The notes beneath the pieces are model-generated. The model saw nothing but the letters and a program-made list of their open reading frames with translations, was not told the DNA's origin and searched no databases. Shown here piece by piece: positions 6,863-64,000 of a stretch of DNA of 64,000 bases. The stretch covers positions 1-64,000 of the forward strand of contig JAFKFH010000027.1 in NCBI GenBank assembly GCA_017307375.1. The letters are read 5' to 3'. Position numbers and translations under genes: made by a program. Positions within the stretch are counted from its first letter, which is position 1, and each line of letters opens with the position of its first letter. The DNA is from Alphaproteobacteria bacterium (GTDB taxonomy: Bacteria; Pseudomonadota; Alphaproteobacteria; Ferrovibrionales; Ferrovibrionaceae).

Positions 6863-7318
6863 CTAGTTGGCCCGGGGCAGGCACCGGGGCGGCGCCAGCT
6901 GGTAGATATAGGCATAGGCACCGACATCGACCCGGACCGAACCGCCGTCGCACATGCCGTTGGCCCGGTAGAGAATCGGCTGCGGCACCGTCACCGTCCA
7001 GCCCTGCGTCAGGTTCAGCTTGATCGAGGCGGCGTCCTGCGCCGCCAGCAGGGCGGCCTGGTCGCGCGCATTGTCCAGCCCGGTGGTCGGCTGGCTCAGC
7101 AGCAGCAGATTGCGGTTTTCCAGGAATGCCTTCTGGTTGAGCGAAGCCAGCTGGCGTTCGACATCGTCGCGGCCGAGGCTGAAGCGGAAGGCGTCGAACG
7201 TCCGGTAGAGCTGCGGGCCGGCCAGGGCGGTGATCAGCCCCATGACGGCCAGCAACACGACCAGTTCGATCAGGGTGACGCCGGCCTGGCCAAGGCTGCG
7301 GCGTCGCCGGCAAGGCAT
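6863..7318 (-). CDS. gspH: Type II secretion minor pseudopilin GspH
   Basis: A 151-aa prepilin-like protein. A short basic leader ends in GQAG, followed by the class III cleavage context G|VTLIELVV with Glu at +5 and a hydrophobic helix (ELVVLLAVMGLITALAG). The remainder fits the globular domain of GspH, a minor pseudopilin at the tip complex of the type II secretion pseudopilus. Start at ATG 7316-7318, 11 nt after the gspG stop, is consistent with translational coupling. An ORF extending upstream overlaps gspG in another frame and was not used. Could also be called a GspH/FimT-like protein. Confidence 0.8.
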   Translation of the reverse strand: MPCRRRRSLGQAGVTLIELVVLLAVMGLITALAGPQLYRTFDAFRFSLGRDDVERQLASLNQKAFLENRNLLLLSQPTTGLDNARDQAALLAAQDAASIKLNLTQGWTVTVPQPILYRANGMCDGGSVRVDVGAYAYIYQLAPPRCLPRAN

Positions 7319-7329
7319 CCGCGGCAGGC

Positions 7330-7818
7330 TCAGTTCGGCGGCAGATCGCCGATCTCGGCGTCGTTGCCGGTCCCGCCGGGCTGGCCGTCGGCACCGAGCG
7401 AGTACAGGGCATAGGCGCGGCCGTCGCGCCCCGGCAGCGAATAGACGTAGTTTCGGCCCCAGCCATCCTGCGGCAATTTGCCGCCCTCGAGATACGGACC
7501 GTTCCAGCGGGCCCGCAGCGTCTGGTCCTGTGGCGGCGTCACGAGCAGGGCCAGCCCTTCCTCGGCGGTGGGATAGCGGCCGACATCGAGGCGCAGCGTA
7601 TCGAGCGCGCCCTTCAGCATCTTCAGCTGAGTAAGCGTGGTGTCGACCTTGGCGCGGTCGACGCGACCCAGAAGATTCGGCCCGATCAGGCCGACCAGCA
7701 GACCGATGATGACCAGCACCACCAGCATTTCCAGAAGGGTGATGCCGGCTTCGGCCAGCGCATGGCGGCGGCGGGTGCGGTTCTGCAGGCGGGCGAGCAG
7801 TCGGGCGGCAAGCAGCAA
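7330..7818 (-). CDS. gspG: Type II secretion major pseudopilin GspG
   Basis: A 162-aa major pseudopilin forming the periplasmic piston of the type II secretion system. The leader is long and basic and ends in AEAG|ITLLEMLVVLVIIGLL, with Glu at +5 as prepilin peptidase requires. Diagnostic GspG features are present: VGRYPTAEEGLALL, WNGPYL and the C-terminal DGWGRNYVYSLPG, which forms the calcium-binding region of the family. It is followed by gspH and preceded by a hairpin and the NlpC-like gene. Confidence 0.95.
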   Translation of the reverse strand: MLLAARLLARLQNRTRRRHALAEAGITLLEMLVVLVIIGLLVGLIGPNLLGRVDRAKVDTTLTQLKMLKGALDTLRLDVGRYPTAEEGLALLVTPPQDQTLRARWNGPYLEGGKLPQDGWGRNYVYSLPGRDGRAYALYSLGADGQPGGTGNDAEIGDLPPN

Positions 7819-7867
7819 GATGGCACACTCCGGTAATGGCGGTCGGCAGGCCGCCGCGATTATCGCG

Positions 7868-7900
7868 ATCGGGGGCGGCAGGTCAACCGCCGCCCCCGAT
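7868..7900. other. Perfect 12-bp hairpin between the NlpC-like gene and gspG
   Basis: Arms 7868-7879 (ATCGGGGGCGGC) and 7889-7900 pair perfectly around a 9-nt loop. No T-tract follows on either strand. Lying between two co-oriented minus-strand genes, it may be an intercistronic processing or attenuation element that sets different levels for the exoprotein and the pseudopilin genes. Confidence 0.5.
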
Positions 7901-7920
7901 GCATCGGCGCGGGATCGCGG

Positions 7921-8937
7921 TCAGTTGACCGCCGAGTTCACGTCGACCAGCCGGCCGATATTGGTCTGGCCGACAGCTTGCGTGGTGAATGTGGCGACAT
8001 TGGTGCCGGCGGTATATTGCGGGAAGAAGGGGTCGCCGCCGGCGAACTGGTGCTGCAGCGGCACGCCGGAGGAATTCACGGTGAAATAGATGAAGCCGGT
8101 GCCGACCCCGCCGCCGAGGCTGTTGGCATTGCCGGTCGTCTGGCTGCAGGCCGGGTTGTTGAAGGTGCGGCTCGACGGCCAGCCCGCCGAGGCCAGCGGC
8201 GGATTGCTTGCCGTCGCCGGGTAGTGCGACAGGCAGGATTCGTCGGCGACTTCGACCGCATAGACGGCGCCCGGCAGGGATATCTTGTTCGTGCCCAGCG
8301 CCGTCGGGATGATCGAGTTGCACATCTGGCTGTTGGCGGTCGTGATCGTGCTGCAATTGACCGTCACCGGCTGGGCCGGTCCGATGGCCAGCATGACATG
8401 GCCGGTATCGCCGCTGGACGCCTTGCCGTTGCAGAAAGTCGTGCCGCACCAGGCGATGATGTCGCCCTTCTGGATCGTCCGCAGGTCGGTCACCGACGCA
8501 AATCCCGGGATGGCGGTCGGCTGGGTCTGCAACTGCTTGAAGCCTGCCGCGAACACGAACGCCTGAGGATATTTGTCACCCGACGTATAGCCGGGGTTGT
8601 TCTGCTTGAAGTTGGCCATGTAGTTGACGAAGAAGCTGTAGAATCCCGAGTAGTTGGTCGGGGCGCTACCGCCCAGCAGATAGCTGATCCAGCCCGAACA
8701 GTCCGTGTCGACTGTGTATTTGCCCGTCGTCTGATTGTAGCTGACGTTCGGGTAGCCGTTTGCGGTCTCGTAGCTGTAGAAGGTCTGGCCAAGATTGTTG
8801 ATGACCACGCCGGCGTGATTGTAGACGTTCGCCGCGGTCTGGCTGGCCTGGGCCTTGGCCTCGCCGGTGGCCACGCCGAGCGACAGGCAGCCGGCGATGA
8901 TCGTGGTTGCGGCCAGGCGGTTGCAAATGGTCGTCAT
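7921..8937 (-). CDS. Secreted NlpC/P60-like protein, candidate T2SS substrate
   Basis: A 338-aa exported protein with a signal peptide (about residues 1-30, ending AKAQ). The sequence holds the hallmarks of an NlpC/P60-type papain-fold domain: TDCSGWISYLL with candidate nucleophile Cys80, KGDIIAWCG and GDTGHVMLAIG with candidate His180. Such domains are usually peptidoglycan endopeptidases or amidases. The mature protein is rich in Asn, Ser, Thr and Gln and has several Cys pairs, as expected of an exoprotein. ATG 8937 has GGAG about 8 nt upstream. It lies between gspF/araC and gspG/gspH on the same strand. Family assignment is from motifs, without a profile search. Confidence 0.65.
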   Translation of the reverse strand: MTTICNRLAATTIIAGCLSLGVATGEAKAQASQTAANVYNHAGVVINNLGQTFYSYETANGYPNVSYNQTTGKYTVDTDCSGWISYLLGGSAPTNYSGFYSFFVNYMANFKQNNPGYTSGDKYPQAFVFAAGFKQLQTQPTAIPGFASVTDLRTIQKGDIIAWCGTTFCNGKASSGDTGHVMLAIGPAQPVTVNCSTITTANSQMCNSIIPTALGTNKISLPGAVYAVEVADESCLSHYPATASNPPLASAGWPSSRTFNNPACSQTTGNANSLGGGVGTGFIYFTVNSSGVPLQHQFAGGDPFFPQYTAGTNVATFTTQAVGQTNIGRLVDVNSAVN

Positions 8938-9041
8938 GGTAGCTCCGAAAAGCGGATGTTGGGGCGGTGCAGTCATACTGTGGCCAGTTTGCCGGGCGCC
9001 CGGCATTGACGGCAATCACGTTGTACGGCCGTGGGATTAAG

Positions 9042-9860
9042 TTAGGCCATGAGCGGCAGACGCACTGCCGTCAACCAGTCGGACGGCAGATGTTTGCGGG
9101 GGTCGTTCAGATACTCCTCGACGCAGGGGCCATCGGCCGCTTCCTCGCCCGATCCCGGTAGCCAGACCCCATAGAGGCCGCGATAGGCTCGCTCCAGTTC
9201 TGCGTAAGGACCCCGGAATTCGACTTCCGCGTACCGTCCGCCGGCAATGGCCAGCCACTCCATGCCCGCAGCCAAGGCGCCGCCGCCGGGCACCAGCAGT
9301 GCCGCCGCGGATCTGAGCTGGCTGGCCGGCTTGCTCTGCGGGTCATCGAAATAGATGCCGAAGCTGCGGGGCCGCGCCGCCAGCAGTCCATGGCCCGCCG
9401 CCCAGCTGATCAACCGCTCGAAGGCGCGGCCGATTTCCATGTAGGGTCCCTGGTGGCGAATCGCGGCGACGACCAGGGCGGGCTGTCTGCCGATCGTCAC
9501 CGCCGGCAGGGTCGCGCGCGCCGCGCTGGCCCGATAGGTGGCGGGCGTCGCCCGATAGCATGCCTGGAAGGCGCGGCGGAATGCCGTGACCGACCCGTAG
9601 CCGGCGCCGGCTGCGACGCGGGCGATGGCGACGCGTCCGGCGATCAGCTGGCCGGCTGCCCGGTGCAGCCGCAGGCGTCGCAGCGTTCCGGCCAGCGTCT
9701 CGCCGGTCATCGAGCGGTAGATGCGATGGAAATGAAACGGCGAAAGACAGGCGAGCTCGGCGAGCGCGTCGAGGTCGAGATCGTCGTCGAGATGGTCCGA
9801 GATGAACGACTGTACCCGTGCGATCCGCTCGGCATAGGCGGCGCGCGTGGCGGTTCGCAC
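9042..9860 (-). CDS. AraC-family regulator with GyrI-like effector domain
   Basis: 272 aa. Residues 1-110 form the double helix-turn-helix of AraC regulators (LACLSPFHFHRIYRSMTGETL, then VAAGAGYGSVTAFRRAFQ). Residues 120-272 form a GyrI-like small-molecule binding domain of the SOUL/BmrR type (VVAAIRHQGPYMEIG). The architecture matches Rob/SoxS-like regulators that respond to hydrophobic ligands. GTG start lies 4 nt after the gspF stop, so it is read with the secretion genes. It may control this operon or the neighbouring exoprotein gene; that is inference. Confidence 0.88.
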   Translation of the reverse strand: MRTATRAAYAERIARVQSFISDHLDDDLDLDALAELACLSPFHFHRIYRSMTGETLAGTLRRLRLHRAAGQLIAGRVAIARVAAGAGYGSVTAFRRAFQACYRATPATYRASAARATLPAVTIGRQPALVVAAIRHQGPYMEIGRAFERLISWAAGHGLLAARPRSFGIYFDDPQSKPASQLRSAAALLVPGGGALAAGMEWLAIAGGRYAEVEFRGPYAELERAYRGLYGVWLPGSGEEAADGPCVEEYLNDPRKHLPSDWLTAVRLPLMA

Positions 9861-9864
9861 GGGC

Positions 9865-11070
9865 TCAGATCTGGATGTTGGAGATCGAGGTGACGGCCAG
9901 CATGATCGCGGTGACGATCAGCCCGATCACGGCGCCGATGATGATGATCGCCATCGGCTCGATCACCAGGAGGAACCGCTTCATCCGGTCCTTGGCCGAC
10001 CGTTCGTTCAGCGCCGCCAGGCTCTTCAGCATGTCCGGCAGGTTGCCGGCCCGCTCGCCGATACGCACGAGGTTCAGGCCGATCGGCATCATCTCGGTGT
10101 GGGCCGACAGCGAATCGGCAAGGCTCTTGCCGCCGCGCACGGCCTTCTCGACCTGGGACATGCGGTCGCGCACGCTGGGCACGCGCAGGCCCGACCGGCT
10201 CAGCTCCAGCGCCTGGATCAGGGGAATCTTGTTGCGCAGCAGGATGGACAGCATCGCCGCCCAGCGGCCGACCTCGGTCTCGTCGAGCCAGCCGCCGAAC
10301 AGCGGCAGCTTCGGCGCGACTTCCATGGCCGCGGCGCGCACCGCCGGGCGGCGCGACAGCATCAGCACGGTGACGACGAACAGGCCGAAACCGAGGCCGA
10401 GTTCCAGAAGATTGTCGCGGGTGAACAGCCCGATGGTCAGCACGATCTTGGACAGCATCGGGATTTCGACCCGCGCCGACTGGAACATGGCGGCGAAGCG
10501 CGGCACGACCACGATGAAGATGAACAGCACGGCGGTGACGCCGGCCCCGACCAGGACCGACGGGTAGACCAGCGCGTTGCGAATCTCCTGCAGGACGCGG
10601 AAGTCGTAGTCCATCTGCGCGGCGCCGTCCCGCAACGCCTCGGCCAGTTGGCCGGTCATCTCGCCGGCCGCGACCAGCTGATGGACATAGGTCGGCAGCA
10701 TGGGCAGATTGGCCTTCAGCGCGACCGAGAAGCGCTGGCCCTGGCGCAGCGCCCGCTCGATCTGGTCGAAGGCCTGGGAGAGATCGAGGGGCAGGTCGGA
10801 ATGGCCGAGCGACTTCACCGCCTCGGCCAGCGCGACGCCGGCGTCGAGCAGCACCGCCAGTTCGCCCATCACCAGGATCTGGTCCTGGCGGCCGCTCTTC
10901 TTCTTTGGCGCCCGCTTGGGCTTGGCCTTGACCGTCGCCAGGCCGATCTCGACCGGCGACAGCCCCTGCGCACGCAACGACCGTTGCGCCTCGCGCAGCG
11001 AGCCGGCGCTGATCTGGCCCTTCATCATGCGGCCTTCGGCGTTGGCCGCCTCGTAGGAAAATTCGGGCAT
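9865..11070 (-). CDS. gspF: Type II secretion inner-membrane platform protein GspF
   Basis: 401 aa, the usual GspF length. Two repeated T2SSF domains, each with helices before a membrane segment: hydrophobic spans near 167-190, 220-240 and 370-395. Family motifs include LLDAGVALAEAV, LVAAGEMTGQL and VRIGERAGNL. GspF anchors the ATPase GspE to the inner-membrane platform of the secretion machine. The gspE stop and the gspF ATG overlap by one base, implying coupled translation. Confidence 0.93.
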   Translation of the reverse strand: MPEFSYEAANAEGRMMKGQISAGSLREAQRSLRAQGLSPVEIGLATVKAKPKRAPKKKSGRQDQILVMGELAVLLDAGVALAEAVKSLGHSDLPLDLSQAFDQIERALRQGQRFSVALKANLPMLPTYVHQLVAAGEMTGQLAEALRDGAAQMDYDFRVLQEIRNALVYPSVLVGAGVTAVLFIFIVVVPRFAAMFQSARVEIPMLSKIVLTIGLFTRDNLLELGLGFGLFVVTVLMLSRRPAVRAAAMEVAPKLPLFGGWLDETEVGRWAAMLSILLRNKIPLIQALELSRSGLRVPSVRDRMSQVEKAVRGGKSLADSLSAHTEMMPIGLNLVRIGERAGNLPDMLKSLAALNERSAKDRMKRFLLVIEPMAIIIIGAVIGLIVTAIMLAVTSISNIQI

Positions 11071-12833
11071 CAGCCTTCCGCTTCGTCGCCCTGGCCTTCA
11101 CCCAGGCCGGTCATGCGCAACACCTCGGCGACCGTGGTCTCGCCCCGCCATGCCTTGATGATGCCGTCCTCGCGCAGCGTGCGGAAGCCTTCGCCGCGCG
11201 CGATCTTGAGCAGTTCGGGCGGCGTCGCCTGGCGCATGATCGCTTCCGATAATGCCGGGGAGACCGCGGCCAGTTCATAGACGCCGAGACGGCCGCGATA
11301 CCCCGATCCCTGGCAGGCGCGACAGCCGACGGGCTTGCGAAAATTCGGCGCGCCCTCGAAGAAATGGGGGAAGCGCCGGCGCAGATCGTCGACGATGGCG
11401 CGTGCGGTCGGCGGCATCGGCTCGGGCTCGCTGCATTGCGGGCACAGCCCGCGCACCAGCCGCTGGGCCTGCACCGCGGTCAGGGCCGAGGCGACCAGGA
11501 ACGGTTCGACGCCCATGTTGATCAGTCGCGTGAAGGCCGACAGCGAATCGTTGGTGTGCAGGGTCGAGAACACCAGATGTCCGGTCAGCGATGCCTGGAT
11601 CGCGATCTCGGCGGTCTCGAGGTCGCGGATTTCGCCGATCATGATGATGTCGGGATCCTGGCGCAGGATCGAACGCAGGGCGCGCGCGAAGGTGTAGCCG
11701 ATTTCCGACAGGACCTGGACCTGGCTGACGCCCTTGACGTTGTATTCGACCGGATCTTCGACGGTGATGATCTTGTCTTCGCCGTTGTTGATCGCCTCGA
11801 GCGTCGCATAAAGCGTCGTCGACTTGCCCGAGCCGGTGGGGCCGGTGACCAGCACGACGCCGTGCGGCTCGGCCACGACGCGGTGGAACAGGGCCAGCGT
11901 ATCGGCCTCCATGCCGATCTTGTCCAGCCGGAAGGCCTTGCGCTCCTTCGGCAACAGGCGCAGCACGATCGATTCGCCCCAGACGCCGGGCAGGCAGGAG
12001 ACGCGCACGTCGATCTCCTCGCCCGACAGGCGCAGCGACAGGCGGCCGTCCTGCGGCAGGCGGCGTTCGGCGATGTCGATGCCGGAGATCAGCTTGACGC
12101 GGCTGGCCACCGCATCGAACCGATCGCGCGGCAAGGTCAGGCGGGTATGCAGGATGCCGTCGATGCGGAAGCGGAAATGGAAGAACCGCTCCTCCGGCTC
12201 GACATGGATGTCGGATGCCCCCTCGTTGAAGGCCTGGGCGAACATGTTGGAGACCAGCTCGACGATCGGCGCGCCTTCCGCCAGCTCGCGCAGATGGGCG
12301 ACATCGTCGAGGCCGGATTTCGCTTCCAGCCGTTCCTGCACCTGGCGGACCAGATGCAGCGCCTTGTCGAGTTCCTGATTGGCGGTCAGCCACCAGGTGA
12401 CTTCGCGCGTGCCGAAGGCCTGGGAGATCACTTCCTGGACGATCGGGCTCAGCGGGTCGCGGGCGATGACGTTGACCACGCGCTCGTCGTCGGTCCAGGC
12501 AAGGACGGCCTGATCGAGCCACCAGTCGATCGGCAGGCCCGATTCCTCGATCAGCGCCTGGAACGGCGCGGCATTGCCGGGAATGCGGTCGGGGGTGGCC
12601 ACGGGCATGGCAAGCTGGCGCGACAGCGTGTCGAGCAGCCGTTCTTCCGACAAGGTTCCCATACGTACCAGGACACCGCCAAGCCGGCCGCCGAACTGGC
12701 GCTGGAAGGCCAGCGCGCGATCGAGTTCGTCGTTCGAGATGAAGCCGGCGGCGACCAGCAACTGGCCGAGCGGGGCCAGCGCCGGGTCGAGGGGCGGCAG
12801 GGAAATCTCGACGGGGTCGGCGGTCAACGCCAT
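11070..12833 (-). CDS. gspE: Type II secretion ATPase GspE
   Basis: 587 aa. N-terminal MshEN-like domain, then the T2SSE ATPase: Walker A GPTGSGKSTTLYAT (near 333), Asp box ITVEDPVEY, Walker B PDIIMIGEIRD (near 395), His box GHLVFSTLHTND. A C-terminal tetracysteine zinc element (CPQC near 464 and CRAC near 505) supports GspE over PilT. It powers pseudopilus assembly from the cytoplasm. ATG 12833 is preferred over TTG 12857 because AAGGA lies upstream. First gene of the minus-strand gsp cluster, diverging from hspQ. Confidence 0.95.
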   Translation of the reverse strand: MALTADPVEISLPPLDPALAPLGQLLVAAGFISNDELDRALAFQRQFGGRLGGVLVRMGTLSEERLLDTLSRQLAMPVATPDRIPGNAAPFQALIEESGLPIDWWLDQAVLAWTDDERVVNVIARDPLSPIVQEVISQAFGTREVTWWLTANQELDKALHLVRQVQERLEAKSGLDDVAHLRELAEGAPIVELVSNMFAQAFNEGASDIHVEPEERFFHFRFRIDGILHTRLTLPRDRFDAVASRVKLISGIDIAERRLPQDGRLSLRLSGEEIDVRVSCLPGVWGESIVLRLLPKERKAFRLDKIGMEADTLALFHRVVAEPHGVVLVTGPTGSGKSTTLYATLEAINNGEDKIITVEDPVEYNVKGVSQVQVLSEIGYTFARALRSILRQDPDIIMIGEIRDLETAEIAIQASLTGHLVFSTLHTNDSLSAFTRLINMGVEPFLVASALTAVQAQRLVRGLCPQCSEPEPMPPTARAIVDDLRRRFPHFFEGAPNFRKPVGCRACQGSGYRGRLGVYELAAVSPALSEAIMRQATPPELLKIARGEGFRTLREDGIIKAWRGETTVAEVLRMTGLGEGQGDEAEG

Positions 12834-12979
12834 GGCCGGACGGGTTCCTTCAGGCAAATCTGCTCCGCAACGTAGAGAACCCGTCCCCCGGGTTCAAGCC
12901 GGCTATTCCCGTGTCGCGAATCGGCGCCGATGCATCGGGCCGATTGAAACGCCGCGGCTTCGCGCCGTAAACTGGGCGG

Positions 12980-58410: not shown

Positions 58411-60147
58411 TCAGACGACGCCGGCCCAGCCGCGGAACAGCGCTTCGTAGGCCGCCAGCGGCGCCTGCTGGTCCAGCAGCGTCGGCAGCCCCGCTTCGAT
58501 CGCCTCGATGCAGCGGGTGCGAAAGTCGGGGTCGGTGGCGACGCGCACGGCCAGTGCAACATAGGCTTCCGGCGTTGCCGCCACCAGGTCGGTGAAGCCG
58601 ATCGCCCGATACATGCCGACGGTCATCCGTTCGCGCATGAACCGCCCTTCGGCCGTGACCACCGGCAGTCCCAACTGCAGCGCCTGGAACGACGTGTTGC
58701 CGCCCGAGAAATGCAGCGAATCGAGCATCACGGCGCCATGCCTGATCAAGGCGAGATACTCGGGCAGCGGCAGGCGCGGCATCACCACGAGCCGCGCGGC
58801 CAGCGCGCCGAGGCGACGGCGGATGCGCTCGATCACGGTGCGGCCGTGTTCGACCGGCATCATCTCGAAGAGGATCAGGCAGCCTTCGTCATCGCGCTCC
58901 AGGATGGCGGCGAGGATGTCGTCGAAGGCGGGATGCAGCTTGTAGGTCGTCTGCGCGCAGATATAGAGACGTGCTCCCGACGGGACCCCGGCGGGCAGCC
59001 TTGCTTCGGCCGCGACGTCGAGCCGGGGATAGGGCGTAACCTGGCCGGGCAGGCGGACCAGCCGCTCGGTGTAGTGGGCTTCGCCGTCCGCCGGCTCGGC
59101 CTCGGCGCTGGCGATGAAGTAGTCCAGCGAGGGCAGGCCGCTGGTCTCGGGGTGGCCGGGCAGCAAGGCCTGCACCGGGGCCAGCCGCGCGGCGGCAAGC
59201 ATGTAGAAGAAGAAGTCGATGTGGACATCGGTATAGATCAGGATGTCGAACTGCAGTGCCGCGATCAGCCGGCGCGCCTCGCCGACGTGGCCGGGCAGGG
59301 CATGAACTTGTGTGCCCGGGGCGAAGGGCGCGGCGGGCGCCAGCAGGGTCAGCACGTGGACGTCGAACCTGCCGGGATCGAGCCGCTCGGCCAGCGGCCT
59401 GAAGTAGTGGATGTTCGAGGTGATGTTCCAGCTGCCCGCGATCCCGATGCGGATGCGCCGGCGACCGGCCGGCGGGTCGGGCAGATGCGGGCTGGTCCAC
59501 AGGAAATCCGGGACTATGCGCGCATAAAGCCGCGCGATTCGTTCGAGGATCGGCCGGTCGTCGACGCCATGATAGGCGAGCAGCATGAGGTTCGAGGAGT
59601 AGCCGGCGAAGTAGTCGACGAGGTCGACCTTCAGGCCCGGACAGGCCATCAGTTCGTCGAGCCCGGCCGATAGCCGGGCGCGGGTTTCCCCAATGCCCGC
59701 GACCGATTCCTCGCCATACCGCAGCAGTAGCCGCCGCATGACCAGCGCCGCCCCGGGGCCGACCAGGTGCGCGGCCCGGTCGAGCGCCTTTTCGGCCGTC
59801 GGCCAGTCGGCCAGCTGCAGTGCTGCCAGCGCCAGCGCCCGCAACGCTTCCTCGTCGCCCGGGTCGCAGGCGACCGCGGCGCGGGCGACCGTCGCCGCGG
59901 CACGATAGCGCAGCGCGCCGAAGTAATGGCCGAGCAGTGGGGCGACGTCGATGAACGGGCGCGGCGACGACGGCAGGGCGGCGGCGATAAACTGCCAGGC
60001 TTCGAACGTGGTGCCGCCATGGCTGATGGCGCTGCCGGTGGCCAGCAGCAGGTGGCCCAGCGTGACCAGCCGGGCGTGGCTGCGGTCGCCCCGCAGGATC
60101 GCCTGAAAATGCTGTTCGGCTGCGGGCGGGACCGTCGCCTCAGCCAT
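58411..60147 (-). CDS. OGT-like glycosyltransferase (SPINDLY/GT41 type)
   Basis: 578 aa. TPR-like helical N-terminal half (residues 1-200) followed by a GT41 catalytic region: RRIRIGIAGSWNITSNIHYFRPLAERLDPGRFDVHVL and LDSLHFSGGNTSFQALQLGLPVVTAEG, the UDP-sugar binding motif. Bacterial members glycosylate proteins such as flagellin or adhesins. No such target is adjacent. Divergent from gspI with 126 bp between. Confidence 0.85.
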   Translation of the reverse strand: MAEATVPPAAEQHFQAILRGDRSHARLVTLGHLLLATGSAISHGGTTFEAWQFIAAALPSSPRPFIDVAPLLGHYFGALRYRAAATVARAAVACDPGDEEALRALALAALQLADWPTAEKALDRAAHLVGPGAALVMRRLLLRYGEESVAGIGETRARLSAGLDELMACPGLKVDLVDYFAGYSSNLMLLAYHGVDDRPILERIARLYARIVPDFLWTSPHLPDPPAGRRRIRIGIAGSWNITSNIHYFRPLAERLDPGRFDVHVLTLLAPAAPFAPGTQVHALPGHVGEARRLIAALQFDILIYTDVHIDFFFYMLAAARLAPVQALLPGHPETSGLPSLDYFIASAEAEPADGEAHYTERLVRLPGQVTPYPRLDVAAEARLPAGVPSGARLYICAQTTYKLHPAFDDILAAILERDDEGCLILFEMMPVEHGRTVIERIRRRLGALAARLVVMPRLPLPEYLALIRHGAVMLDSLHFSGGNTSFQALQLGLPVVTAEGRFMRERMTVGMYRAIGFTDLVAATPEAYVALAVRVATDPDFRTRCIEAIEAGLPTLLDQQAPLAAYEALFRGWAGVV

Positions 60148-60273: not shown

Positions 60274-60732
60274 ATGGCGATGAGTGCGCCATTTTCCGGA
60301 AGGCAGCGCGAGGCCGGCTTCACCCTGCTCGAGGCGATCGTCGCGATCGCCCTGCTGGGTGCCCTGCTGGTGCCGCTCTACACGCTGATGAGCCGGAATC
60401 TCGACGGCCTCGTCAGGGTGGGGCAGGCCAATCTGCAGAGCGAGGTGACGCTGAATGCGCTGGCCGTGCTCGACACCGTCAATCCGATGGAAAGACCTGA
60501 GGGCAGCGTGGCGCTGGGGGCCTACCTCCTGCGCTGGCGCAGCGCGGCGCTGACCACCCCTGTCGACGGCGTCGGCTTTCCCGCCGGCCAGAGCCTATAT
60601 CAGGTGGCGATGTACCGGACGCAGGCCGAAGTTTCGCGCCTTGACGACCGTGGTGCGACGACGCCCTGGTTCACCTTCGACCTGCGCCAGGTCGGGTGGC
60701 GCCAGGTCCGCCAGTTCCGGCTGCCGTTCTGA
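60274..60732 (+). CDS. gspI: Type II secretion minor pseudopilin GspI
   Basis: 152 aa. Leader ending REAG|FTLLEAIVAIALLGALLVPLY with Glu at +5, then a small beta domain ending WRQVRQFRLPF, as in GspI. First gene of the plus-strand gsp cluster. Its TGA overlaps the gspJ ATG by one base. Confidence 0.92.
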   Translation: MAMSAPFSGRQREAGFTLLEAIVAIALLGALLVPLYTLMSRNLDGLVRVGQANLQSEVTLNALAVLDTVNPMERPEGSVALGAYLLRWRSAALTTPVDGVGFPAGQSLYQVAMYRTQAEVSRLDDRGATTPWFTFDLRQVGWRQVRQFRLPF

Positions 60733-61364
60733 TGATGTCCCGGCGTTGCTGCCGCCGCGAGGCGGGCATGACCCTGCTGGAGGTGCTGGTTGTCGTGGTG
60801 CTGGTCGGCATGCTGGCGACGGCCGCCTTCGAGGGCCTCTCCCGCATCTTCGACCTGCGCCAGCGGCTGGGCGCCTGGATCGACCTGGCGGGGGACAATG
60901 CCATCACCTCGTCCTGGCTGCGCGATTCGCTGGCCGGTGTGGTTCCCGAATACGAAAACGGCCCGAATCCCTTCCGGGGTAGCGAGCGATCGGTACGCGG
61001 CCTGACCATCGCAGGCCTGCGGTCCCGGCCGGGCGTGCCGGTGCCCTTCGAGTGGCGTATCGCCGAGGGGCGTCAGTCGGCGCTGGAATATCGCGAAGGC
61101 CTCGATCCCAGTTTCCGGCAGTACTGGCAATGGGAAGGCCAGCGCGGTCGCTTCGTCTACGTCGCCGAGGACGGCAAGACCTACCCGACCTGGCCGCCCG
61201 AAGGCGTGACCTTGCCCACCGGTGCGGTCATTCCCCAGCTTCCGGCGGCGATCGAGGTGGAGTTTGGCGGACCGCCGCTGGGCCGGCTGGTCGTCTACGC
61301 GGGGATCATCACGATGCGCGACGCCGACAAGCTGATCACGCCGATGGGAACGCCTGTCCAATGA
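60732..61364 (+). CDS. gspJ: Type II secretion minor pseudopilin GspJ
   Basis: 210 aa. Leader REAG|MTLLEVLVVVVLVGMLATAAF, then a domain with DNAITSSWLRDSLAG, SALEYREG and a long loop, as in GspJ. Met after the Gly of the cleavage site is unusual but tolerated. Part of the I-J-K tip complex. Confidence 0.88.
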   Translation: MMSRRCCRREAGMTLLEVLVVVVLVGMLATAAFEGLSRIFDLRQRLGAWIDLAGDNAITSSWLRDSLAGVVPEYENGPNPFRGSERSVRGLTIAGLRSRPGVPVPFEWRIAEGRQSALEYREGLDPSFRQYWQWEGQRGRFVYVAEDGKTYPTWPPEGVTLPTGAVIPQLPAAIEVEFGGPPLGRLVVYAGIITMRDADKLITPMGTPVQ

Positions 61365-62443
61365 CCGGGTTGCGCAGGGACGACGGCTTCGTCCTGGTGA
61401 TGACCATTCTGGTCGTCATGGCGATCGCGCTGGGCCTGGCGGTCTTTACCGAATGGGTCGGCGGTGCGACCAATCGCGCCTTCGACCTGCGCCAGCGGGT
61501 CGAGGCCGAGCGGCGCATCGCGGAGGCGCGCGCCGACGTGCTGTACTGGTTCGGCACCCAGCTGATGTCCCCGCGCGGCCTCGAACTCGCGGCGATCGGC
61601 GGGCCGAGCAGCACGATGACGATGTCGCAGGAAGACCGCATCAAGCAGATGCTGGCCGGGGGCAGCGGGGTCACCCAGGCCGCCACCTACCTGCGGCTCG
61701 ACGATACGCTGTATCGCAACCGCGAAGGGACCCTGGTGCGGATCCAGGATTCCCGCGGCCTGATGAACCTCAACTTCGCCGAACCGGACGACGTCGTCAG
61801 GTTGCTCAGCGCCTTCGACGTGCCGGCGGAATCGCGGGCGGCGCTGGTGCCCAAGCTGCTCGACTACATCGATACCGACGACCTGGTTCGCCTGAACGGG
61901 GCCGAACGGCTGCAATATGTGTCGGCCGGCCGGCAGCCGCCGGCCAACGGCCTGCTGCGCACCCCCTGGGAAGCGCGCTCGGTGATGGACTGGGACCGGT
62001 TCGACCAGCTGTGGAAGGCGGAGGGCGGGTTGCCGTCGGCCACGTCGGCCACCCGCACCGTCGGCATCAACATCAATACGGCGCCGGCCGCGGTGCTGGA
62101 GGCGATCGGCCTGCCGGCCGAGAACATCGCCAAGCTGCTGGCCGTACGGCAGGAACGTCCGCTGGAAAACATCGGCGAGATGTCGGCCCTGCTAGGTGCG
62201 GTCGCGGCGGTCGATCCGTTCCGCTTCCTGATCAATCCGACCAACAGCTTCCGGCTGACGCTTCAGGCGGCCGGCATACCGCTGAAGCGTGAACTGGTGG
62301 TGACATTGACCCCGCAATCGACCCGGGGGCCGTGGCGTATTGACTATATTATCGCTTTGCCCTCATCTGGCGCCCATGCAGGCAATCAACCAACTGCGTC
62401 GGAGCCTTTCCCCGAGCCCGCAGCGCTTCTTTCACCGGGTTGA
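61361..62443 (+). CDS. gspK: Type II secretion minor pseudopilin GspK
   Basis: 360 aa. Leader DDG|FVLVMTILVVMAIALGLAVF lacks Glu at +5, which is normal for GspK. Large domain with DSRGLMNLN, LLDYIDTDDLVRLNGAE and VGININTAPAAVLEAIGLP (a helix-hairpin-helix-like motif). Caps the pseudopilus tip. Starts within the last 4 nt of gspJ. Confidence 0.92.
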   Translation: MTGLRRDDGFVLVMTILVVMAIALGLAVFTEWVGGATNRAFDLRQRVEAERRIAEARADVLYWFGTQLMSPRGLELAAIGGPSSTMTMSQEDRIKQMLAGGSGVTQAATYLRLDDTLYRNREGTLVRIQDSRGLMNLNFAEPDDVVRLLSAFDVPAESRAALVPKLLDYIDTDDLVRLNGAERLQYVSAGRQPPANGLLRTPWEARSVMDWDRFDQLWKAEGGLPSATSATRTVGININTAPAAVLEAIGLPAENIAKLLAVRQERPLENIGEMSALLGAVAAVDPFRFLINPTNSFRLTLQAAGIPLKRELVVTLTPQSTRGPWRIDYIIALPSSGAHAGNQPTASEPFPEPAALLSPG

Positions 62444-63449
62444 GGGCGTGACGCCGCCGGACGGCGGGCGCGGTCAGAAGCAATGGGTGTTGAGCCGGGC
62501 GCTCTGCCGCTTTGCCACCTTCAGCCTGCCGCAGGGATTGGCCCCTGCCGATCGTGAGCGCGCGCTCAAGCTGATGATCGACGAAGCGTCGCCCTATGCG
62601 ACGACCGGGTATCTGGCCGAATGGGGCAAGGGCGAGGCCGGTGCCTGGCTGTGGGACCAGGAAGCCGTGACCCAGGCCGTGATCACCGCCGGGCATGATC
62701 CGCGCGCGGTTGTCGTGCTGCCGGAGACGGCGCTGCAGCAGCCGGGCGAGACCGGTGCGCGGCTGGTCGAGGTCCTCGACGGCCATGAGGGGCAGGTATG
62801 GCGCGGCGGCTTGCTCAAGGCCAGCCGCTACTGGCCGCGCCAGCCGGATCAGGCGGAGTGGATCCGGTTTCTGCGTGCCAGCGGCGATCCCGAAGCCTTG
62901 CGGCATGCATCCGTGACGGCCCCGGGCGCCCCGGTCTGGCTGGAGCGGCCGTGGCCGCGGCGCTCGGCCGGATCGCCGTTCAGCGAGTTTCGCGGCTGGA
63001 AGGTGGCGGCGGCGATCGGCTGCTGCGCCGTCCTGCCCTTCGCCTATCAGGTCGGTCAGATCGCGGTGATGGCGGCGGAGGCGCGCCGGCTCGGCGCCGA
63101 TCTGCGCCGAATCGAGAGCGAGGCGGCACCCGTGCTGGCAGCCCGTGACGCCGCCGTGAAAAGTGCGGCCCGCGTCCGCCAGCTCGAGGCGCTGCGGCCT
63201 TATCCCGGCCCGGTCGAGGTGATGGCCCGCATCGCCGAAAAGCTGCCGACCAACGGCACGGTGCTCCAGGACTTGAACTACCAGCAGGGCGAAGTGCGCT
63301 TCACCCTGAGCGGCCAGCCGAACTTCGATGCCCCCTTCTATGTGCGCGCGCTGTCTTCGGTACCGATCTTCACCGACGTGAATGCCGAGAATTCGCCGGC
63401 CCCGGGCACGCTGGTCCTGCGTCTCAAACTCGTCAGGCAGACGTCGTGA
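62376..63449 (+). CDS. gspL: Type II secretion assembly protein GspL-like
   Basis: 357 aa. N-terminal region resembles a reduced GspL cytoplasmic domain, with one membrane span (VAAAIGCCAVLPFAYQVGQIAVMAA, residues about 210-233) and a C-terminal ferredoxin-like part (PVEVMARIAEKLPTNGTVLQDLNYQQGEVRFTLSG). Starts 68 nt before the gspK stop, in another frame, with no strong ribosome site, which suggests coupling. GspL links the ATPase to the pseudopilus platform. Confidence 0.8.
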   Translation: MQAINQLRRSLSPSPQRFFHRVEGVTPPDGGRGQKQWVLSRALCRFATFSLPQGLAPADRERALKLMIDEASPYATTGYLAEWGKGEAGAWLWDQEAVTQAVITAGHDPRAVVVLPETALQQPGETGARLVEVLDGHEGQVWRGGLLKASRYWPRQPDQAEWIRFLRASGDPEALRHASVTAPGAPVWLERPWPRRSAGSPFSEFRGWKVAAAIGCCAVLPFAYQVGQIAVMAAEARRLGADLRRIESEAAPVLAARDAAVKSAARVRQLEALRPYPGPVEVMARIAEKLPTNGTVLQDLNYQQGEVRFTLSGQPNFDAPFYVRALSSVPIFTDVNAENSPAPGTLVLRLKLVRQTS

Positions 63450-64000
63450 GCCTGGCCGACAACATGCGCGCGGCCTTCGCCCCGGTGCGCGAGCAGATCG
63501 CGCAGGCGATGGCGCCGCTGGTGGCCCAGGTCCGGTCCAATCGGCGCCTGGCCATCGCCCTGGCGCTGATCCCCGTGATGCTCTGGGGCTATCTGGTGCT
63601 GTCGACCCAGGCCTGGGTCGACGATGCGGTCAGCCGGCTGAACCAGCGGCGCGAGGAAGTCGCCCGGCTGGAGCGCGTGGCCGGCGACGCCGCCTGGGCC
63701 CGGCGGGCGCGCGAGGCCGACGCCCGGCGCAGCGAACTGGAAAATCGCCTCTGGCGCATCGAAACCGAAGGCCTGGCGCGCGCCGAATTCCAGGAGTGGC
63801 TGTTGTCGTCGGCCCGCAAGGCCGGGATCGGCCGGCCCACCGCGACCTCGCAGCGCACCGACGGCGAAGCCACGGCGCAGGCGGGGTATCGGGCGATCAG
63901 CGTGTCGTTGTCGGGCGACTTCAGCCCCGAGTCGCTGCAGGCCCTGCTGGCGACCATTGCGAATGAAAAGCGTCTCATTATAATCAACAGCATGCGGATA
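63446..64000 (+). CDS. gspM: Type II secretion protein GspM-like (cut by window edge)
   Basis: First 185 codons; GTG start overlaps the gspL stop by 4 nt (GTGA). One membrane span (LAIALALIPVMLWGYLVL, about 34-51) after a short cytoplasmic leader, then a coiled coil (DDAVSRLNQRREEVARLER) and a domain typical of GspM. C-terminus not in the window. Assignment leans on order and topology. Confidence 0.8.
   Translation, partial: MSLADNMRAAFAPVREQIAQAMAPLVAQVRSNRRLAIALALIPVMLWGYLVLSTQAWVDDAVSRLNQRREEVARLERVAGDAAWARRAREADARRSELENRLWRIETEGLARAEFQEWLLSSARKAGIGRPTATSQRTDGEATAQAGYRAISVSLSGDFSPESLQALLATIANEKRLIIINSMRI

What the first reader, a model, noticed from the sequence alone, without database searches (positions are those of the whole stretch)
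7921..8937. NlpC/P60-like exoprotein and its own regulator lodged inside the gsp operon
A 338-aa exported protein with a plausible Cys80/His180 papain-fold pair lies between gspF-araC and gspG-gspH. Cargo genes embedded in a secretion operon are rare, and papain-fold proteins exported by a T2SS could be cell-wall or predation enzymes. Its sequence is Asn/Ser/Thr/Gln-rich, unlike the cytoplasmic proteins around it.
Basis: partly seen in the sequence, partly recalled or inferred. Interest (0 to 1): 0.6.

Follow-up and report, generated by a model that had tools for sequence, protein, structure and literature searches.

The report
Exported papain-fold enzyme inside T2SS genes
A gene placed between the core genes of a bacterial protein-export machine encodes an exported protein from a small, uncatalogued family that looks papain-like, most likely a cell-wall-cutting enzyme that the machine itself secretes.

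Summary
A 338-aa ORF (window 8937-7921, minus strand) with an export-signal-like start lies between gspF-araC and gspG-gspH. Pfam, NCBIfam, PHROGs and PDB sequences gave no hit. Seven distant relatives (23-28% identity) were found: four in Alphaproteobacteria (one with RTX repeats), one each in Cytophagales, Mycobacterium and Nostoc. A low-confidence model puts them on the canonical papain elements. Its two best PDB alignments are wall hydrolases, Tse1 and PlyC (Z 7.3 and 6.6; suggestive only). In the three genomes with the closest T2SS found, gspF runs straight into gspG, so the insertion is probably derived. The T2SS is also split: gspI-to-gspD lies 47 kb away on the other strand. "Its own regulator" is not shown: the AraC-type gene is 4 nt from gspF and about 100 nt from the exoprotein gene. 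Export by the T2SS and a peptidoglycan substrate are inferences with one close precedent (PnpA, PMC7860986).

The parts
7921..8937 (-). 338-aa exported papain-like protein (exoprotein gene)
   Evidence: relatives; alignments
8845..8937 (-). N-terminal export signal (residues 1-31, AQA/S cleavage site by eye; a lipobox-like IAGC at residues 14-17 is an alternative reading)
   Evidence: read directly; no signal-peptide predictor was available
8698..8700 (-). codon of Cys80, predicted nucleophile
   Evidence: invariant in 8 of 8 rows; first residue of helix 51-62 (mature numbering) in the model, block pLDDT 69
8398..8400 (-). codon of His180
   Evidence: invariant in 8 of 8 rows; first residue of strand 151-155 in the model, block pLDDT 77
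8242..8244 (-). codon of Asp232, predicted third catalytic residue
   Evidence: invariant in 8 of 8 rows; on strand 195-205 in the model, block pLDDT 51
9042..9860 (-). AraC-type HTH plus GyrI-like ligand-binding domain regulator, 4 nt behind gspF
9865..11070 (-). gspF
   Evidence: T2SSF 5.8e-43; TIGR02120 GspF 4.8e-74, below that model's cut-off
11070..12857 (-). gspE ATPase with an MshE-type c-di-GMP motif at residues 29-81
   Evidence: T2SSE 8.7e-133; TIGR02533 557 bits, below its cut-off of 630; NF053729 65.4 bits against cut-off 38
7330..7818 (-). gspG major pseudopilin
   Evidence: TIGR01710 170.5 bits, above cut-off 88.85
6863..7318 (-). gspH-like minor pseudopilin (start by eye)
   Evidence: N_methyl E 0.11 only; matches ORFs in the gspH place of G031, G115 and G194 at 36-40% identity
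7868..7900 (.). perfect 12-bp inverted repeat between the exoprotein gene and gspG, overlapping a promoter-like TTGACC-16-GATAAT on the minus strand
8990..9005 (.). 16-bp perfect palindrome between araC and the exoprotein gene
60274..64000 (+). gspI, gspJ, gspK, gspL and the start of gspM; the rest (gspM-C-D) lies beyond the window, to contig position 67010 (gspK by eye)

Best explanation
The gene encodes a secreted papain-like cysteine hydrolase of the NlpC/P60-CHAP-amidase branch. Steps: (1) a Sec-type signal takes it to the periplasm (read from the sequence, no predictor used); (2) it folds there, perhaps with disulfides among its six other mature cysteines (inferred); (3) the T2SS in whose genes it sits moves the folded protein out of the cell (inferred from position and precedent); (4) Cys80, activated by His180 and Asp232, attacks an amide bond, most likely in peptidoglycan stem peptides of other bacteria or of wall debris (inferred). 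My step estimates: exported 0.93, papain fold with that triad 0.85, T2SS cargo 0.55, peptidoglycan substrate 0.5. The gene and the araC-type gene beside it probably came in between gspF and gspG after this T2SS lineage had a contiguous cluster (inferred from three other genomes).
For: Relatives: six by motif scan of a collection of 84,980 species genomes, two of which (L012, L014) had also been met by whole-protein search, and one on a Nostoc plasmid by whole-protein tblastn from the Mycobacterium relative. In the 8-row alignment Y54, D79, C80, A126, G158, T178, G179, H180, M182, D232, H238, R257, G277, G279 and G281 are invariant. By reading rows against the two scan patterns, Cys was not needed for the hit in L013, L015 and L016, His not in L011, neither in L012, L014 (whole-protein search) and Nostoc; Asp232 and Arg257 were in no pattern. 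Model from 7 rows: pTM 0.60, mean pLDDT 52, no residue at 90 or more, 92 of 309 at 70-90; Cys at a helix N-end, GD before strand 1, His on strand 2, Asp on strand 3. VIA-align: Tse1 4fgi Z 7.3 (3.7 A, 130 residues), PlyC 4f88 residues 310-464 Z 6.6 (3.4 A, 129 residues), next row 3.3. hhalign against 20 NlpC/P60 domains: score 30.6 with 7 rows and 31.8 with 8, reached by 0 of 60 column shuffles each time, GD and GHV in register. The Nostoc relative hits NLPC_P60 at E 0.021, over Cys and His, below the cut-off. The closest T2SS loci found have no insert between gspF and gspG: G031, G115, G194. Precedent: PnpA, an NlpC/P60 endopeptidase secreted by a T2SS and active on peptidoglycan of two Vibrio species (PMC7860986, passages).
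Against: No curated family hits the window protein, and a PF00877 search of its own genome finds nothing. hhalign probability against NlpC/P60 is only 26-34%; with 8 rows CHAP is reached by 2 of 60 shuffles and DUF2272 by 1 of 60. Foldseek found nothing at E <= 0.001; Z under 8 can be a common arrangement (note). The Asp232 region of the model is poor (block pLDDT 51). Cys and His are 100 residues apart, against 46 in the NlpC/P60 domain L078 (counted). The GD aspartate is missing in 1 of 8 rows (L015 has GA). Nothing tests export by the T2SS; relatives carry other export signatures (RTX repeats, lipoprotein-like start), so the domain does not need a T2SS. No wall-binding domain was recognised. 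A lipobox-like IAGC leaves open a membrane-anchored protein.
Confidence: 0.45

Rival explanations
1. Papain-like protein that is exported but acts on a surface protein or other substrate (protease, transglutaminase-like or acyltransferase-like), for example processing or cross-linking surface-layer or matrix proteins, not peptidoglycan.
For: One relative carries RTX repeats (L012) and one a lamin-tail domain (L015), parts of extracellular and surface proteins. An exported Asn/Ser/Thr-rich ORF follows gspD in the same genome, and an exported-looking 447-aa Ser/Thr-rich ORF adjoins gspE in G194. Surface-layer genes next to T2SS clusters are published (PMC10765051, passages).
Against: The two best structural alignments are to wall hydrolases and the best profile match is NlpC/P60, although fold does not fix substrate. 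The two exported ORFs beside the T2SS loci are not clearly related to each other (E 0.14 at best).
Confidence: 0.28
2. Periplasmic or membrane-anchored cell-wall enzyme that merely landed in the gsp genes and is not T2SS cargo.
For: Only position argues for T2SS export. A perfect inverted repeat follows the gene, a palindrome precedes it, and a promoter-like site precedes gspG, as if it were its own transcription unit. Lipobox-like residues 14-17; the Mycobacterium relative begins like a lipoprotein.
Against: Sporadic distribution does not fit housekeeping: of 61 genomes only the window's own has it, none of the 17 others of its family. Composition is that of an extracellular protein. No promoter-like site was found upstream of the gene itself.
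Confidence: 0.2
3. Not papain-like: the Cys/His resemblance is chance or convergent.
For: No curated family hit, no significant Foldseek match, low-confidence model, Cys-His spacing about twice that of an NlpC/P60 domain.
Against: The order Cys helix, GD strand, GHV strand, Asp strand is that of the canonical fold and is shared across four phyla; the Nostoc relative scores below cut-off for both NLPC_P60 and CHAP over the same residues.
Confidence: 0.07

Closest known systems
PnpA of Photobacterium damselae subsp. piscicida (NlpC/P60 endopeptidase secreted by a T2SS; PMC7860986, passages read)
   Same: Sec signal, papain-like cysteine hydrolase, T2SS present in the host
   Different: PnpA is a recognised NlpC/P60 protein with proven T2SS export and activity; here neither is tested, the sequence is outside the Pfam family, and the gene sits between gspF and gspG
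Tse1 amidase of Pseudomonas aeruginosa, PDB 4fgi
   Same: best structural alignment of the model, Z 7.3 over 130 residues; peptidoglycan amidase of the papain-like branch (PMC10318531)
   Different: Type VI effector; PMC10318531 groups Tse1 with DUF2272, and the DUF2272 profile is not clearly above shuffles here
PlyC endolysin, PDB 4f88 (CHAP lysin in PMC10318531; that residues 310-464 are its CHAP domain is recalled)
   Same: second structural alignment, Z 6.6 over 129 residues; sub-threshold CHAP hits on L015, L016 and Nostoc
   Different: phage lysin; the CHAP profile score is not clearly above shuffles with the 8-row alignment
psp beside hxc in Pseudomonas fluorescens SBW25 (PMC2225411, passages) and npdA beside gsp (PMC10765051, passages)
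   Same: exported protein gene physically linked to T2SS genes
   Different: those flank the cluster; here the gene lies between two core genes

Membership tests
NlpC/P60 (PF00877) | reaches the Pfam gathering score (23 bits) | tested here: not met
   no hit for the window protein nor anywhere in its genome; Nostoc relative 15.2 bits
NlpC/P60 (PF00877) | profile similarity with Cys, GD and His motifs in register | tested here: inconclusive
   hhalign 26% and 34%, 0 of 60 shuffles reach the score each time; the Cys motif aligns only when the alignment is forced over the whole length
CHAP (PF05257) | reaches the Pfam gathering score (26 bits) | tested here: not met
   no hit for the window protein; L015 14.2, L016 12.6, Nostoc 14.0 bits
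DUF2272 (PF10030, Tse1 group) | reaches the Pfam gathering score (27 bits) | tested here: not met
   no hit for the window protein nor in its genome
DUF2272 (PF10030, Tse1 group) | profile similarity above shuffled columns | tested here: inconclusive
   3 of 60 shuffles and 1 of 60 reach the real score; only 8 DUF2272 sequences used
Papain-like cluster II of PMC10318531 (NlpC/P60, CHAP, amidases) | Cys at N-end of core helix, His and third polar residue on the following strands | tested here: inconclusive
Papain-like cluster II of PMC10318531 (NlpC/P60, CHAP, amidases) | GD motif on strand 1 with an Arg partner on strand 5 | tested here: inconclusive
   GD in 7 of 8 rows (GA in L015); Arg257 in 8 of 8 but not scored invariant in the 7-row alignments; whether that Arg is the partner is not known
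Papain fold | structural match to solved papain-fold proteins | tested here: inconclusive
   Foldseek no match at E <= 0.001; VIA-align Z 7.3 and 6.6, below 8
T2SS substrate | Sec or Tat export signal | tested here: inconclusive
   read by eye from residues 1-31; no predictor available, lipobox-like alternative
T2SS substrate | secretion lost in a T2SS mutant | not testable with these tools
   needs an experiment

The most novel reading that the evidence does not exclude
An undescribed papain-like family whose members leave the cell by different routes (free enzyme in a T2SS locus, RTX-tailed protein, lamin-tail protein, lipoprotein) and which here is a dedicated T2SS cargo, brought in together with a ligand-sensing regulator that makes a T2SS, whose GspE also carries a c-di-GMP motif, into a switchable launcher of a wall hydrolase.
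Probability: 0.12. Interest if true: 0.65.

Novelty: new variant of a known kind. Interest (0 to 1): 0.4.

Why it matters
If right, it adds a family to the papain-like wall-enzyme branch that the searched libraries miss, gives a case beside PnpA of a papain-like enzyme tied to a T2SS, and offers a T2SS locus whose cargo can be guessed from the DNA, which is seldom possible because T2SS cargo is mostly encoded elsewhere (general knowledge, not from a call).

Tried and rejected
Single-sequence structure prediction gave pLDDT 30 and was discarded. Scans of genome and viral collections with the single protein found no relative; alignment scans of viral contigs found none; plasmid and phage tblastn with the window protein found none, nor plasmids with P0003, nor phages with L016. 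A hit in G095 (L004, E 3.1e-4, three stops inside, antisense to a frame that looks by eye like a Rieske-type oxygenase) was dropped as spurious. PADLOC: no hit. A PDB profile search gave only EF-Tu chains and an M protein at E above 1, rejected. Families not listed by VIA-align are not excluded; it compared only 109 chains that Foldseek had ranked. The GspK query was out of frame (it held stops), so gspK in the relatives rests on an ORF of the right place and look in G194. My first extraction of CHAP and NlpC domains mis-oriented minus-strand loci and was redone. The CHAP set holds 20 of 27 places listed (those with loci), the NlpC/P60 set 20 of 20, the DUF2272 set 8 of 8. The tail of the L011 protein was not scanned for families. 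Literature searches; others (NlpC P60 + T2SS + exoprotein; RTX + NlpC/P60 + type I) listed 0 papers. No search could name this family, so that it is undescribed in print is not shown. That lapA lies inside the hxc cluster, and cbpE in a T2SS cluster, is recalled, not taken from a call.

Full report
What is there. Window 8937-7921, minus strand, encodes 338 residues with an export-signal-like start. It lies in the order gspE, gspF, AraC-type regulator, this gene, gspG, gspH, all on the minus strand. The AraC-type gene starts 4 nt after gspF; the exoprotein gene starts 104 nt after the regulator ends and stops 102 nt before gspG (coordinates and the ATG). N+S+T+Q is 33.4%, against 11.8-20.6% for the five neighbouring gene products. 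GC is 63.0% and GC3 87%, against 67.9% GC for the window, so base composition gives no strong sign of foreign origin.

The host. G000 is unnamed. Two genomes that the tool calls 'same class', G541 and G348, have contigs of the same length as Methylobacterium oryzihabitans NZ_SACP01000001.1 and Acetobacteraceae KSS8 JAMSKV010000001.1, so the window is very probably from an alphaproteobacterium (inference).

The T2SS around it. The secretin and gspI-J-K-L-M-C-D are on the same contig, plus strand, 60274-67010. The gap between gspE and gspI is 47 kb. The best GspF matches in other genomes are G115 (47%), G031 (45%) and G194 (42%). In G031 and G194 matches to gspE, F, G, H, I, J, L, M, C and D follow one another on one strand; in G115 the contig holds the end of gspE through gspL (gspK not testable, see Tried and rejected). 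gspF is followed directly by gspG in all three. More widely I scanned 34 distinct GspF loci from other genomes (3 listed matches had no locus and were not scanned). A GspG match lay nearby in 17; in one of these, L033, it runs on the opposite strand and was dropped. Of the other 16, 15 have the GspF and GspG matches within 122 nt and one (L022) 377 nt apart; in the window 2,046 nt separate the two genes. In the remaining 17 no GspG match was seen within the flank, so they say nothing. The simplest history is insertion of the two-gene block and one inversion with a breakpoint between gspH and gspI; this is inference.

Relatives. The gene was found in 1 of 61 genomes of the nearest relatives, the window's own; the 17 other genomes of its family have none. 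Of 385 class genomes 3 matched, own included, one of them (G095) rejected; of 398 phylum genomes 3, own included; with the 3-row profile 1 of 149 genomes of G541's family, G541 itself; with the 7-row profile 2 of 367 class genomes, own included. These samples overlap. A motif scan of the 84,980-species collection matched 20 stretches, of which 6 encode relatives: Methylobacterium oryzihabitans, three Acetobacteraceae records, a Cytophagales MAG and Mycobacterium sp. 1165178.9. A further relative sits on a Nostoc sp. C052 plasmid, annotated as hypothetical protein. The Methylobacterium protein has RTX repeats (HemolysinCabind 1.9e-38, 8 stretches), L013 has only weak RTX signals, L014 no Pfam hit, and the Cytophagales protein a lamin-tail domain. 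So the same domain occurs in proteins with several export signatures.

Fold and active site. In the 8-row alignment Cys80, His180, Asp232, His238 and Arg257 are invariant. The model from seven rows has pTM 0.60 and mean pLDDT 52. In mature numbering Cys51 opens helix 51-62, the GD pair precedes strand 131-134, His151 opens strand 151-155 and Asp203 lies on strand 195-205; the ten-residue blocks that hold them have mean pLDDT 69, 75, 77 and 51. Cys at the N-end of the core helix, His and a third polar residue are the canonical triad, and GD on strand 1 marks the NlpC/P60-CHAP-amidase cluster (PMC10318531: passages and sections 4 and 9). VIA-align ranks Tse1 (Z 7.3, 3.7 A, 130 residues) and PlyC residues 310-464 (Z 6.6, 3.4 A, 129 residues) well above the third row (3.3), but its note warns that Z under 8 may be a common arrangement. 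Foldseek alone was not significant: best E 0.78, to a mitoribosomal chain.

Profile tests. Against 20 NlpC/P60 domains taken from relatives' genomes hhalign gives 26% (7 rows) and 34% (8 rows), with 0 of 60 column shuffles reaching the score in each case. CHAP is reached by 0 of 60 with 7 rows and by 2 of 60 with 8. DUF2272 is reached by 3 of 60 and 1 of 60. The protein is therefore best called papain-like, nearest NlpC/P60, and not a member of PF00877.

Regulation. The adjacent regulator has an AraC-type HTH and a GyrI-like ligand domain and is closer to gspF than to the exoprotein gene. A 16-bp palindrome lies upstream of the exoprotein gene, and a perfect 12-bp inverted repeat and a promoter-like site lie between it and gspG. 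The scan of 7300-9200 found that one promoter-like site where shuffles give 0.3 on average, none upstream of the exoprotein gene, and did not list the inverted repeat as a terminator. This fits separate transcription of gspG-H and perhaps of the exoprotein gene, but shows neither.

Function. PnpA shows that a papain-like peptidoglycan endopeptidase can be T2SS cargo and act on other bacteria's walls (PMC7860986, passages). By that precedent the best guess here is a secreted wall hydrolase; a role on surface proteins is the main rival, because two relatives carry RTX or lamin-tail parts.

Noticed in passing
window 6863-12857 and contig 60274-67010: The T2SS is split into two opposite-strand halves 47 kb apart, breaking between gspH and gspI; in G031 and G194 the cluster is contiguous.
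   Followed up: partly
window 11070-12857: GspE carries an MshE-type c-di-GMP binding motif above the NCBIfam cut-off, so secretion by this T2SS may respond to c-di-GMP.
   Followed up: no
L006:7359-7730 (contig 67358-67729): Exported-looking Asn/Ser/Thr-rich ORF about 350 nt after gspD, cut by the contig end; no Pfam hit. Possibly a second cargo.
   Followed up: partly
L056:6207-7550: In G194 a 447-aa exported-looking Ser/Thr-rich ORF lies divergently beside gspE, without a Pfam hit.
   Followed up: partly
window 58411-60147: A protein with a glycosyltransferase family 41 match (7.6e-16) and TPR matches below cut-off lies divergently beside gspI.
   Followed up: no
window 7868-7900: Perfect 12-bp inverted repeat with a promoter-like TTGACC-16-GATAAT overlapping it, between the exoprotein gene and gspG.
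   Followed up: no
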